This document shows positions 7,701-12,673 of a stretch of DNA of 12,673 nt, one piece after another. The stretch comes from Nitrospinota bacterium (GTDB taxonomy: Bacteria > Nitrospinota > Nitrospinia > UBA9942 > JAHJSF01), in the NCBI GenBank assembly GCA_018830405.1, contig JAHJSF010000105.1, positions 1 through 12,673 of the forward strand. Direction: 5' to 3'. The number at the start of each line of letters is the position of its first letter. Position 1 is the stretch's first letter. The notes beneath the pieces are model-generated. The model was not told the origin of the DNA, did no database searches, and saw only the letters and a list, made by a program, of their open reading frames with translations. Made by a program: the position numbers and the translations under genes.

Positions 7701-8351
7701 TTATTTCCGGTTCTTTATGGCGTTTATGGCCTCTTTGTAATTATCACTGCCGTAGACCGCCGACCCGGCCACAAGAATATCGGCCCCCGCCTCCACGATT
7801 TTGCCCGCATTGGCCGAAGTTACACCCCCGTCTACCTCTATCTCTATCTTGTATCCCCCTTTGGAGATTATTTCCTTCAGGGCCCTTATCTTCTTCAGGG
7901 CGGAGGGGATAAATTTTTGCCCCGAAAAGCCGGGGTTGACCGACATTATGAGGACATAGTCGATATCCTCCAAAACGTGGTCGATATAATCCAAGGGAGT
8001 CGATGGGTTAAAAACGGGGGCGCATTTTTTCCCCAAATCCCTAATCATCCGCAGTGTCCCCTGGAGGTGGGGGCAGGTCTCCACCTGGACGCTTATCTAG
8101 TCTGCCCCGGCCTTGGCGAAGGCAGGGATGTGGCGCTCAGGATTCTCTGTCATCAGATGAACATCAATGGGGAGCTTGGTGCACTTTCTAACCGCCTCAA
8201 CAATAAACGGCCCGATGGTGATGTTGGGGACAAAGTGACCGTCCATAACATCGACATGTATAATGTCCGCCCCCGCCTCCTCTACCGCTTTTATCTCCTT
8301 GGCCAGATTTCTGAAATCAGCTGATAGTATAGATGGCGCAACCTTGACCAT
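7701..8351 (-). pseudogene. rpe: Ribulose-phosphate 3-epimerase interrupted by an in-frame TAG
   Basis: The 217-codon frame, including its final TAA, encodes a complete TIM-barrel epimerase, which interconverts ribulose-5-phosphate and xylulose-5-phosphate in the pentose phosphate or Calvin pathway. Codon 85 (8097-8099) is TAG. Upstream are APSILSADF (5-13), the metal ligands H32 and D34 in [12 protein letters not shown], and H65 in DVHLM. Downstream, without any frame shift, follow ISVQVETCPHL, VNPGFSGQ (138-145) and the ligand D174 in EVDGG. The stop falls where intact family members have a hydrophobic or aromatic residue between AGAD and ISV. Everything else looks functional, so the lesion is recent, a sequencing error, or a read-through codon. 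The ATG at 8349-8351 has an SD (GGGAG, 6 nt away). The 84-residue N-terminal piece alone cannot form the active site. Confidence 0.85.
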
Positions 8352-10157: not shown

Positions 10158-10490
10158 TTAGCATGATACATTCACCCTTTTATGTGCACGTATGGCATTT
10201 ATTTCATCATCCAGTGGCAGGTTCAGCGCCTTTTTATATAAAAACACCAGTGCATTCATCGCCTGGTTTTGGGTAGAGGGGGATACGTTTCCTTGGACTG
10301 CAAGATGGGTCAAAAAAAGTTCAATCTTTTTTTGACCCTCGGAAAGATCGTTCCGGGACTTCATGTCGTGAAATTGAATAAATTTTTTGATCCAATCGCA
10401 ATAGGTTCGTTCGGTATGGATCAAATAATGATGAAGCCGCATATAATCACGGACTTCGTCTAGCAACTTACGTTTTTTTTGTATTGACAT
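10158..10490 (-). pseudogene. Tyrosine recombinase/integrase remnant (N-terminal SAM-like domain only)
   Basis: The 110 residues match the N-terminal core-binding domain of phage- and integron-type tyrosine recombinases: LLDEVRDYMRLHHYLIHTER, TYCDWIKKFIQFHD, FLTHLAVQGNVSPSTQNQA and ALVFLYKKAL. Family members run to about 300 residues or more, with an R-H-R-Y catalytic domain that is absent here. The frame stops at a TAA just after RAHKRVNVSC. In the next frame, a stretch beginning VMLNRSEANLF (from about 10167 downward) resembles the continuation PVVLTREEV of intact integrases, so a one-base frameshift probably came first and the catalytic part was then lost. No SD precedes the ATG at 10490. 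Flanked by the MITE-like element and an orphan lipoprotein, it marks a decayed integration site. Confidence 0.75.
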
Positions 10491-10634: not shown

Positions 10635-10823
10635 ATGAACCAGCACCACATGAAAAAAATTGTTTTCACGATTGTGACTATGATTTTTGCTGGCTGTTCA
10701 GTAATTGGCCATATGGACACAATCGAGCCTACTGATTCATCCGGGTGGGTCGAAACTCAACCACCATCCTCGTTCAAAGTTTACTATCATGAATGCGAGG
10801 ATTTTATATTAACCTCTTACTAA
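10635..10823 (+). CDS. Small predicted lipoprotein, function unknown
   Basis: A 62-residue frame whose N-terminus is a lipoprotein signal: MKKIVFTIVTMIFAGC, two lysines, a hydrophobic stretch and a lipobox ending in Cys. The mature product would be about 42 residues (CSVIGHMDTIEPTDSSGWVE onward), anchored by lipid. Two starts are possible. The ATG at 10635 has GGTGGA 9 nt upstream, while the ATG at 10650 gives the more standard MKKIV signal with no SD. No family was recognised, and the short mature part may be a truncated remnant of a longer protein in this disturbed region. It ends 25 bp before the glycosyltransferase-cupin gene. Confidence 0.45.
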   Translation: MNQHHMKKIVFTIVTMIFAGCSVIGHMDTIEPTDSSGWVETQPPSSFKVYYHECEDFILTSY

Positions 10824-10848
10824 ATATATTTTCCCCGGAGAAAAACAG

Positions 10849-12204
10849 ATGCATATTGCCATGCTTTCGCCCATTGCCTGGAGAACCCCGCCCCGCCATT
10901 ACGGTCCATGGGAGAGCGTTGTTTCTCTCCTCACAGAGGGCTTGGTTGCCAGAGGTGTCGATATTACCCTCTTTGCCACTAAAGACTCTATTACAAAGGG
11001 CCGTCTCCAGGCGGTCTGCAAAAAAGGCTACGAGGAGGATGTCCATGCAGAGCCGAAGGTTGTGGAATGCCTCCATATATCGGAGCTCTTTGACAGGGCC
11101 GGCGACTTTGACATCATACACAACCATTTCGATTTTCTTCCCTTAACCTATAGCGGGCTGGTGAAGACCCCGGTGGTTACGACCATACACGGTTTTTCTT
11201 CCCCCAGGATTCTGCCTGTCTATGAAAAGTACAATGGCAAGGTCTTCTACGTCGCCATAAGCGAGGCGGACAAGGCGGCCGGTCTCGATTATATCAGGAC
11301 GATACACCATGGTATCGATCTCAATGAGTTCACATTCAATCCCGAGCCGCAAGACGATTACCTCCTGTTTTTCGGCAGAATACACTCCGACAAAGGTGCG
11401 AAAGAGGCGATAGAGATCGCCAGGCGGAGCAAGAAGAGGCTGATAATGGCCGGCATCATCCAGGATGAAGTATACTACAAGCGTGAAGTGGAGCCTCACC
11501 TTAACGGTGACGGCATTACCTACGTCGGAAGCGTTGGCCCCGCAAAGAGGGACACGCTCCTGAGGGGTGCGGGCGCTCTGCTGCACCCGATCAACTTCAA
11601 CGAACCCTTCGGGCTTTCCGTTACCGAGGCGATGGCGTGCGGCACGCCGGTCATAGCCTTCAACAGGGGGAGTATGCCGGAACTCATACGAGACGGCGTC
11701 AACGGATACCTCGTCTCCACTGTGGAAGAGGCGGTTCATGCCGTGGGAAGACTTGGCGATATCAACAGGGCCAACTGCCGGAAGTTTATAGAAGAGAACT
11801 TTTCCGTCGAGAGGATGGTGACCGATTACATAAAGGTTTACGAGGAGATAATCGAAAAGACAAAGCGCGAAGAGCGCAGGCCCTGGGGGTATTACGAGGT
11901 TTTTATCGACGATCCGGACCATAAGATAAAGCGTATTATCGTGTATCCCGGAAAGCGGCTCAGTCTCCAGAGGCACAGGCGGCGCTCCGAGCACTGGCAC
12001 GTCATCTACGGCGAAGCGGTAGTCACTCTTGACGACCGAGAGATAATACTGCAGGCGGGGGATTCAATAGACATTCCGCAAGGGGCCGTCCACAGGATGG
12101 CGAACCGTGGGAAGGAGAATATGGCCTTGGTAGAGGTGCAGCGCGGCGACTACTTCGGTGAGGATGACATCGAGCGGCTGGAGGATGATTTTGGACGCAA
12201 CTAG
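10849..12204 (+). CDS. GT4 glycosyltransferase fused to a mannose-6-phosphate isomerase type II (AlgA/ManC) cupin
   Basis: A 451-residue two-domain protein. Residues 1-about 340 form a GT-B glycosyltransferase: MHIAMLSPIAWRTPPRHYG (1-19), HGIDLNEF (154-161), GRIHSDKGA (176-184), and a canonical EX7E motif, E252 to E260, in NEPFGLSVTEAMACGTPV. Residues about 344-450 match the C-terminal cupin of type II phosphomannose isomerase/GDP-mannose pyrophosphorylase enzymes: RPWGYYEV, YPGKRLSLQRH (366-376), SEHWHVIYG, IPQGAVHR (409-416), GDYFGEDDIERLEDDFGR. The second ligand position of the cupin H-x-H motif is R378, with H376, E381 and H415 kept. The nucleotidyltransferase part of ManC is absent. An SD (CGGAG, 10836-10840) lies 8 nt before the ATG. 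The GH130 gene starts 10 bp after the stop. A role in a mannose-containing oligosaccharide is inferred from the fusion and neighbour. Confidence 0.88.
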   Translation: MHIAMLSPIAWRTPPRHYGPWESVVSLLTEGLVARGVDITLFATKDSITKGRLQAVCKKGYEEDVHAEPKVVECLHISELFDRAGDFDIIHNHFDFLPLTYSGLVKTPVVTTIHGFSSPRILPVYEKYNGKVFYVAISEADKAAGLDYIRTIHHGIDLNEFTFNPEPQDDYLLFFGRIHSDKGAKEAIEIARRSKKRLIMAGIIQDEVYYKREVEPHLNGDGITYVGSVGPAKRDTLLRGAGALLHPINFNEPFGLSVTEAMACGTPVIAFNRGSMPELIRDGVNGYLVSTVEEAVHAVGRLGDINRANCRKFIEENFSVERMVTDYIKVYEEIIEKTKREERRPWGYYEVFIDDPDHKIKRIIVYPGKRLSLQRHRRRSEHWHVIYGEAVVTLDDREIILQAGDSIDIPQGAVHRMANRGKENMALVEVQRGDYFGEDDIERLEDDFGRN

Positions 12205-12214
12205 GAGGAAACCT

Positions 12215-12673
12215 ATGGACCCTGTGATAAAGAGGTACGAAAAGAATCCTGTGCTGACCAAGCATGACGTCCCTTACCCCGTGGAGACGGTACACAATGC
12301 CGGTGTCGTGAAACATGAGGGGCGATACATCATGCTCTTCAGGTCGCACCTCAGAAATGGCAGGTCCGTTATCGGCAAGGCTGAGAGTGAAGACGGATTT
12401 TCCTTTACTGCTTACCCCGAGCCCTTCATCACACCTGCTACCGAAGGGATATTTGCCGCTTATGAGGAGTTTGGTGTGGAAGACCTGCGCATCTGTGCTA
12501 TGGAGGGGGAAGACTACCTCCTCACCTACAGCGCCTACTCAAGGCATGGTGTGAGAATAGCCCTGGCGAGAACGGCTGACTTCAAGTCTATTGAACGGGT
12601 GGCTATGATCTCTCAGCCCGACATGAGAAATGTTGTCCTCTTTCCGAGGAAGATCGAGGGCCGCTATGTGCGC
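12215..12673 (+). CDS. GH130 family glycoside phosphorylase/hydrolase, N-terminal part (open at window end)
   Basis: An uninterrupted 153-codon frame runs from ATG 12215 to the last base, with no stop in the window. The N-terminus YEKNPVLTKHDVPYPVETVH (8-27), NAGVVKHEGRYIMLFRSH (28-45), GVEDLRI (87-93, D90 being the expected acid), TYSAYSRHG and PDMRNVVLFPRKIEGRYVR match the five-bladed propeller family GH130. Members phosphorolyse beta-mannosides (mannosylglucose, beta-1,4- or beta-1,2-mannooligosaccharides). About half of a typical 300-350 residue protein is present. A perfect AGGAGG (12203-12208), overlapping the stop of the upstream gene, is 6 nt from the ATG, so the two genes are surely co-translated from one mRNA. 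The linkage acted on cannot be read from this part. No signal peptide is present, so a cytoplasmic location is expected. Confidence 0.9.
   Translation, partial: MDPVIKRYEKNPVLTKHDVPYPVETVHNAGVVKHEGRYIMLFRSHLRNGRSVIGKAESEDGFSFTAYPEPFITPATEGIFAAYEEFGVEDLRICAMEGEDYLLTYSAYSRHGVRIALARTADFKSIERVAMISQPDMRNVVLFPRKIEGRYVR

What the first reader, a model, noticed from the sequence alone, without database searches (positions are those of the whole stretch)
10849..12673. Glycosyltransferase-cupin fusion coupled to a GH130 phosphorylase
A GT4 enzyme carrying the ManC/AlgA-type cupin without the nucleotidyltransferase is followed at 10 bp by a GH130 gene. This pairs a likely synthetic enzyme with a likely phosphorolytic one in one translational unit, suggesting a make-and-recycle system for an intracellular mannosyl oligosaccharide or compatible solute. 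I know of no specific description of this pair's product.
Basis: partly seen in the sequence, partly recalled or inferred. Interest (0 to 1): 0.6.

Follow-up and report, generated by a model that had tools for sequence, protein, structure and literature searches.

The report
Glycosyltransferase-isomerase fusion with mannoside phosphorylases
The window ends in the first two genes of a widespread, undescribed bacterial gene set in which a sugar-transferring enzyme fused to a probable mannose-6-phosphate isomerase sits beside mannoside phosphorylases, and which looks like a self-contained cycle for making and recycling an internal mannose-containing sugar.

Summary
In detail: a 451-aa GT4 plus PF01050 cupin fusion (10849-12204), with no nucleotidyltransferase domain, is followed at 10 bp by a GH130 gene (12215 on). 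The GH130 gene is cut at codon 153 because the window is a whole contig. The pairing is not chance. GH130 lies within 6 kb of this GT4 clade in 35 of 45 loci, against 0 of 34 for the next-nearest GT4s. In 23 of 33 fused loci the window's GH130 type is the next gene. An 86%-identical relative continues GT4-cupin, GH130, GH130, large GT4. Three operons add phosphomannomutase and a ManC guanylyltransferase that lacks its cupin; the cupin sits on the GT4 instead. I conclude that the cupin is probably a type II phosphomannose isomerase, in a cytoplasmic mannoside make-and-recycle cassette. Two corrections apply. GT4 enzymes retain and should make alpha bonds, while GH130 cuts beta-mannosides, so they are not simple forward and reverse steps. 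The best-characterised GT relative is UDP-glucose:sucrose alpha-1,2-glucosyltransferase TeGSS (42%), so donor and product are open. The GH130 has phosphorylase residues but lacks the beta-1,2 lysine. I found no description in the open-access papers searched. New variant of a known kind; interest 0.5.

The parts
10849..11853 (+). Retaining GT4-type glycosyltransferase domain (residues 1-335), TeGSS-like
   Evidence: PF00534/PF13439; nearest solved structure TeGSS 7fg9/8x3q, E 1e-77, Z 42 over 332 residues; 42% identity, catalytic Tyr18, Arg179, Lys184, Glu256 equivalents kept
11854..12201 (+). PF01050 cupin domain, ManC/AlgA C-terminal type (probable type II phosphomannose isomerase), fused to the GT4
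   Evidence: PF01050 E 1e-34; LSLQRHxxRxEHW...HR...GEDDIER motif kept; only PF01050 hit in the genome
12203..12208 (+). AGGAGG ribosome-binding site of the GH130 gene, overlapping the stop codon of the fusion (probable translational coupling)
   Evidence: sequence
12215..12673 (+). GH130 gene, type A (5' 153 codons only; cut by the contig end)
   Evidence: PF04041 56 bits; 68% identical to the complete 311-aa relative in L013 over 152 aa; E-D-x-R motif and R-N pair present

Best explanation
This is the edge of a cytoplasmic mannoside synthesis-and-recycling cassette. Proposed cycle: the fused cupin interconverts fructose-6-P and mannose-6-P (type II phosphomannose isomerase). A phosphomannomutase interconverts mannose-6-P and mannose-1-P. 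A cupin-less ManC makes GDP-mannose. The GT4 domain, with the large GT4 of the cassette, transfers alpha-linked sugar to a soluble acceptor, as its relative TeGSS does to sucrose. The GH130 enzymes add or remove beta-mannosyl units reversibly through mannose-1-P and phosphate. Mannose-1-P and mannose-6-P are thus shared by the making and the breaking side, and placing the isomerase on the GT4 links glycolytic fructose-6-P to the pathway. Shown here: the fusion, the conserved operon, phosphorylase-type residues in GH130 types A and B, the intact cupin motif, and, in many genomes, a ManC without its cupin alongside a GT4 that carries one. Inferred: isomerase activity, donor sugar, direction of flux, and product (a soluble oligosaccharide, compatible solute or reserve).
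For: GH130 within 6 kb in 35/45 loci of the GT4 clade vs 0/34 control GT4s, Fisher p 1e-13, loci not independent. GH130A next downstream in 23/33 fused loci and some GH130 in 28/33. Close relative L169: GT4-cupin, GH130A, GH130L, large GT4. Operons L156, L163, L165 add PMM (PgmG-like; 528 and 536 bits in the two scored) and a ManC ending before its cupin; L178 has cupin-less ManC next to a GT4-cupin; L030 has ManC-cupin-PMM after GH130B, GT4 and large GT4. Counted: 17 of 23 fusion genomes have a cupin-less ManC; free-standing cupins in 2/23 fused vs 5/11 unfused genomes, p 0.02. In the window's own genome ManC at C71 stops at model position 349 and the fused cupin is the only PF01050 hit. GH130A and B keep the catalytic Asp and the basic phosphate-binding positions (mechanism in PMC4599007). 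No signal peptide is apparent by eye at the N-termini, and no transporter recurs among neighbours.
Against: The nearest characterised GT uses UDP-glucose and sucrose (PMC9909042), and the clade's nucleotide-binding loops differ from it in a way I cannot read as GDP. GT4 retention gives alpha bonds, GH130 acts on beta. The genome also holds a type I phosphomannose isomerase, so the cupin is not the only candidate isomerase. The fusion is gained or lost many times (12 changes on the tree, at least 7 forced by its well-supported branches), so it is not essential to the GT. PMM and ManC are in the operon in only a few genomes. The assembly is 87% complete and the operon is cut.
Confidence: 0.55

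Rival explanations
1. The GT4 is a glucosyltransferase like TeGSS that extends sucrose or another solute with alpha-glucose from UDP-glucose. The GH130s act on a mixed gluco-mannoside made from it, and the cupin only tunes activity by binding a hexose phosphate.
For: 42% identity to TeGSS, Z 42, catalytic residues kept (PMC9909042). GH13 alpha-glucosidase-type genes replace or join GH130 in alphaproteobacterial and mycobacterial members.
Against: PMM and cupin-less ManC in the operon, and GH130s in most loci, point to mannose. The clade's nucleotide loops differ from TeGSS (K205 to I, E232-A-D234 to S-V-G). The cupin keeps the full isomerase motif.
Confidence: 0.22
2. The cassette builds part of a surface polysaccharide or glycolipid, and GH130 trims or recycles it.
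For: GT4 enzymes commonly build surface glycans, and ManC and PMM usually serve them (general knowledge); the cassette has several GTs.
Against: No Wzx/Wzy, ABC exporter, polyprenol transferase or other recurrent neighbour was found. The closest structures are GTs with soluble substrates. A dedicated phosphorylase set is unusual for an exported polymer.
Confidence: 0.13
3. The GH130 belongs to uptake and breakdown of external beta-mannan, and the GT4-cupin is an unrelated neighbour.
For: Most characterised GH130 enzymes are catabolic (PMC8950772, PMC4264767).
Against: Linkage is kept across phyla without recurrent mannanase or transporter genes. GH130A lacks the Tyr that marks GH130_1 and GH130_2 (Glu in 37 of 38, PMC4599007).
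Confidence: 0.05

Closest known systems
TeGSS / alr1000, UDP-glucose:sucrose alpha-1,2-glucosyltransferase (PMC9909042; PDB 7FG9, 7FGA, 8X3Q)
   Same: Closest characterised GT: 42% identity over 333 residues, catalytic Tyr, Arg, Lys, Glu conserved; makes a soluble stress-related oligosaccharide
   Different: No cupin; nucleotide-binding loops differ; described as a likely operon with sucrose-phosphate synthase, here next to GH130 and, in some genomes, mannose-nucleotide genes
Teth514_1788/1789 cluster of Thermoanaerobacter (PMC4264767)
   Same: GH130 phosphorylases encoded with a GT4 and a mannose-1-phosphate guanylyltransferase; mannose-1-P proposed to feed GDP-mannose
   Different: Has an ABC importer and GH5, read as salvage; no GT4-cupin fusion described; its GH130s carry the beta-1,2 lysine, the window's GH130 does not
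ManC/AlgA bifunctional guanylyltransferase / phosphomannose isomerase (TIGR01479)
   Same: Same PF01050 cupin with the conserved motif
   Different: Here the cupin is on a GT4 and the guanylyltransferase is a separate cupin-less gene
Leishmania mannogen turnover by GT108 (as reviewed in PMC8950772)
   Same: Intracellular mannoside made and recycled through mannose-1-P by enzymes with the GH130 five-bladed propeller fold
   Different: GT108, not GH130; no GT4-cupin; eukaryote. A bacterial beta-mannan reserve is only a hypothesis here

Membership tests
GH130 | PF04041 match over the curated cut-off | tested here: met
   56 bits vs 26 on the truncated gene; 187 bits for the complete relative in L013
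GH130 phosphorylase (not hydrolase) | Catalytic Asp plus the basic phosphate-binding residues | tested here: inconclusive
   The window fragment has the Asp and the first Arg but ends before the other two positions. Type A relatives have Arg and Lys there in 36 of 38 rows; the other two rows are the truncated window and one misaligned row
beta-1,2-mannoside-specific GH130 | Lys equivalent to Lys199 of BT3780 (PMC4599007) | tested here: not met
   Window type A has Arg (37/38); types B and L of the same cassettes have Lys (21/22, the other a gap, and 38/38). Column equivalence was inferred from the alignment
GH130_1 / GH130_2 | Tyr before the catalytic Asp | tested here: not met
   Glu in the window and in 37/38 of type A
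ManC/AlgA bifunctional enzyme (TIGR01479) | N-terminal nucleotidyltransferase with C-terminal cupin | tested here: not met
   Only the cupin part matches; 125 vs cut-off 373 bits
Type II phosphomannose isomerase cupin (PF01050) | Profile match and conserved QxH, REHW, HR, EDDI motifs | tested here: met
   119 bits vs 23.6; motif intact in the window, with few substitutions among the other fused cupins
Type II phosphomannose isomerase cupin (PF01050) | Isomerase activity on mannose-6-P | not testable with these tools
   needs an assay
Glucosylsucrose synthase (TeGSS) | Catalytic residues Tyr18, Arg179, Lys184, Glu256 | tested here: met
   All conserved in the window
Glucosylsucrose synthase (TeGSS) | UDP-glucose donor and sucrose acceptor | tested here: inconclusive
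   Acceptor Trp10 and the nucleotide loops differ; specificity needs an assay

The most novel reading that the evidence does not exclude
A widespread bacterial counterpart of mannogen: a soluble mannose reserve or compatible solute started by GT4 enzymes on a small primer, extended and mobilised by GH130 phosphorylases through mannose-1-P, with the isomerase that connects it to glycolysis fused onto the initiating glycosyltransferase.
Probability: 0.25. Interest if true: 0.8.

Novelty: new variant of a known kind. Interest (0 to 1): 0.5.

Why it matters
Most characterised GH130 phosphorylases are read as catabolic. A conserved cassette that ties them to glycosyltransferases, phosphomannomutase, guanylyltransferase and a relocated isomerase domain would show a biosynthetic or storage role in many bacterial phyla, and it gives a short list of purifiable enzymes whose product can be determined directly.

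Tried and rejected
Sole-isomerase idea: rejected, the genome also has a type I PMI; no PF10432 hit. Single origin of the fusion: not supported; the label changes 12 times on the larger tree with a poorly resolved backbone (one row counted as unfused, L189, ends at the contig edge). Recurrent transporters or export genes near the clade: none found (simple ORF calling, so high-GC loci are noisy). The rest of the operon elsewhere in the own genome: one GH130 hit only and no real large-GT4 hit; probably lost at the contig break. My first guess that 7FG9 is HepE was wrong; it is TeGSS tll1591. Literature: no paper found on the GT4-cupin fusion or the cassette, but only open-licence papers are held, and a 2020 GH130 diversity paper could not be opened. 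Structure job on the fusion: the list is filled by GT4 structures and the cupin part is barely tested. The second Desulfobacterota-type survey repeated the same genomes as the first apart from the centre and added nothing else.

Full report
Observation. The window is the whole contig C83 of a 1.42 Mb, 185-contig, 87%-complete genome. ORF 10849-12204 encodes 451 aa with GT4 domains and a C-terminal PF01050 cupin. The match to the bifunctional ManC model covers only the cupin. The next gene starts at 12215, 10 bp after the stop, with AGGAGG overlapping the TAG; it is GH130 but is cut by the contig end after 153 codons.

Not chance. A scan of genome contigs with the GT4 alignment gave 80 loci. 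In the clade at about 50% identity or more (45 loci), 35 have a GH130 gene within 6 kb and 22 within 200 bp. Among the 34 next-nearest GT4 loci from the same scan none has one within 6 kb, with similar flank available (p 1e-13). The loci are related, so the p-value is indicative only. The clade spans Thermodesulfobacteriota, Bacteroidota, Fusobacteriota, Actinomycetota, Pseudomonadota, Chloroflexota and others; archaeal MAG members may be contamination.

Anatomy of the cassette. Recurrent members are the GT4; a 740-800 aa GT4 with an extra C-terminal domain (two genes in Actinomycetota); GH130 type A (the window's), type B, and a long type L; and GH13 in some alphaproteobacteria and mycobacteria. 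In 33 loci the GT4 carries the cupin; 23 of these have GH130A as the next gene (2-244 bp between the aligned segments) and 28 have some GH130 on the stretch read. L169, whose fusion is 86% identical to the window's over residues 124-451, continues GH130A, GH130L, large GT4; this is the likely continuation of the truncated operon. L156, L163 and L165 read large GT4, a third GT-like gene (confirmed as GT4 by Pfam in L163), phosphomannomutase, GH130B, GT4-cupin, GH130A, ManC without cupin. L178 and the distant L059 have cupin-less ManC-type genes beside a GT4-cupin (the L059 gene is called by similarity only). L030 has a ManC-cupin-PMM fusion in the cluster. No other neighbour recurs.

The cupin. 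Fused cupins keep the motif shared with genuine ManC cupins (LSLQ-H, R-E-W, HR, EDDI-R). In the own genome the fused cupin is the only PF01050 hit, and the ManC at C71 ends at model position 349 of 467. Counted, 17 of 23 fusion genomes have a cupin-less ManC, 4 a complete one and 2 none detected; free-standing cupins occur in 2 of 23 fused and 5 of 11 unfused genomes (p 0.02). This fits movement of one activity between carriers. It does not prove activity, and a type I isomerase is also present in the own genome. The fusion has been gained or lost repeatedly.

The glycosyltransferase. Nearest solved structures are TeGSS (tll1591; sequence E 1e-77; Z 42, rmsd 2.3 over 332 residues). TeGSS transfers glucose from UDP-glucose to sucrose with an alpha-1,2 bond (PMC9909042). 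Identity is 42%; Tyr18, Arg179, Lys184 and Glu256 are conserved, but the loops around the base differ in most of the clade. Donor and acceptor therefore remain open.

The GH130. Residues were compared with characterised enzymes using the rules of PMC4599007. Type A has Glu before the catalytic Asp and the basic phosphate-binding set, and lacks the beta-1,2 lysine. Type B has that lysine and the phosphate-binding set. Type L has the lysine but an invariant Gln in place of the third basic residue. Types A and B are thus predicted phosphorylases; linkage for type A is unassigned. The window fragment itself covers only the first half of these positions. Which alignment column matches Lys199 was inferred, not read from a structure.

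Large GT4. Its C-terminal domain folds confidently (pLDDT 92) as an (alpha/alpha)6 barrel nearest to YPO2471 (Z 38, rmsd 2.8, 339 aligned) and cellobiose 2-epimerases (Z 31, rmsd 3.0, 333 aligned). A shared fold does not give the function.

Interpretation. The most economical reading is a cytoplasmic cycle in which fructose-6-P, mannose-6-P, mannose-1-P and GDP-mannose are interconverted by the cassette's own enzymes or by enzymes encoded elsewhere, GT4s make an alpha-linked product, and GH130s add or remove beta-mannose through mannose-1-P. That GT4 enzymes retain configuration is general knowledge of the family (TeGSS is stated to be retaining in PMC9909042). All evidence is genomic; no activity was measured.

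Noticed in passing
window 7701-8351 (-): Ribulose-phosphate 3-epimerase gene interrupted by one in-frame TAG (AGAD*ISVQVETCP); pseudogene, sequencing error or readthrough not decided.
   Followed up: partly
window 10158-10490 (-): 110-aa ORF with a phage-integrase N-terminal SAM-like domain (PF13495) just upstream of the cassette; possibly the remnant of a mobile element.
   Followed up: no
window 10651-10824 (+): Short lipoprotein-like ORF directly upstream of the fusion gene, seen by eye.
   Followed up: no
L169 589-2772 (-): Na+/H+ exchanger with TrkA-N and PTS EIIA-like domains downstream of the large GT4 in the closest relative; may hint at salt response.
   Followed up: no
GH130L rows, e.g. 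L013 4616-6070 (-): Long GH130 type with about 250 residues before the Pfam match and an invariant Gln at the third phosphate-binding position (38/38).
   Followed up: partly
L016 15068-16162 (+): C-terminal domain of the large GT4 is an (alpha/alpha)6 barrel nearest YPO2471 and cellobiose 2-epimerase; function unknown.
   Followed up: partly
L008 7956-13682 (+): Cassette without the cupin (GT4, two GH130, large GT4) on a plasmid of Ilyobacter polytropus typed as conjugative, so it may move between cells.
   Followed up: no
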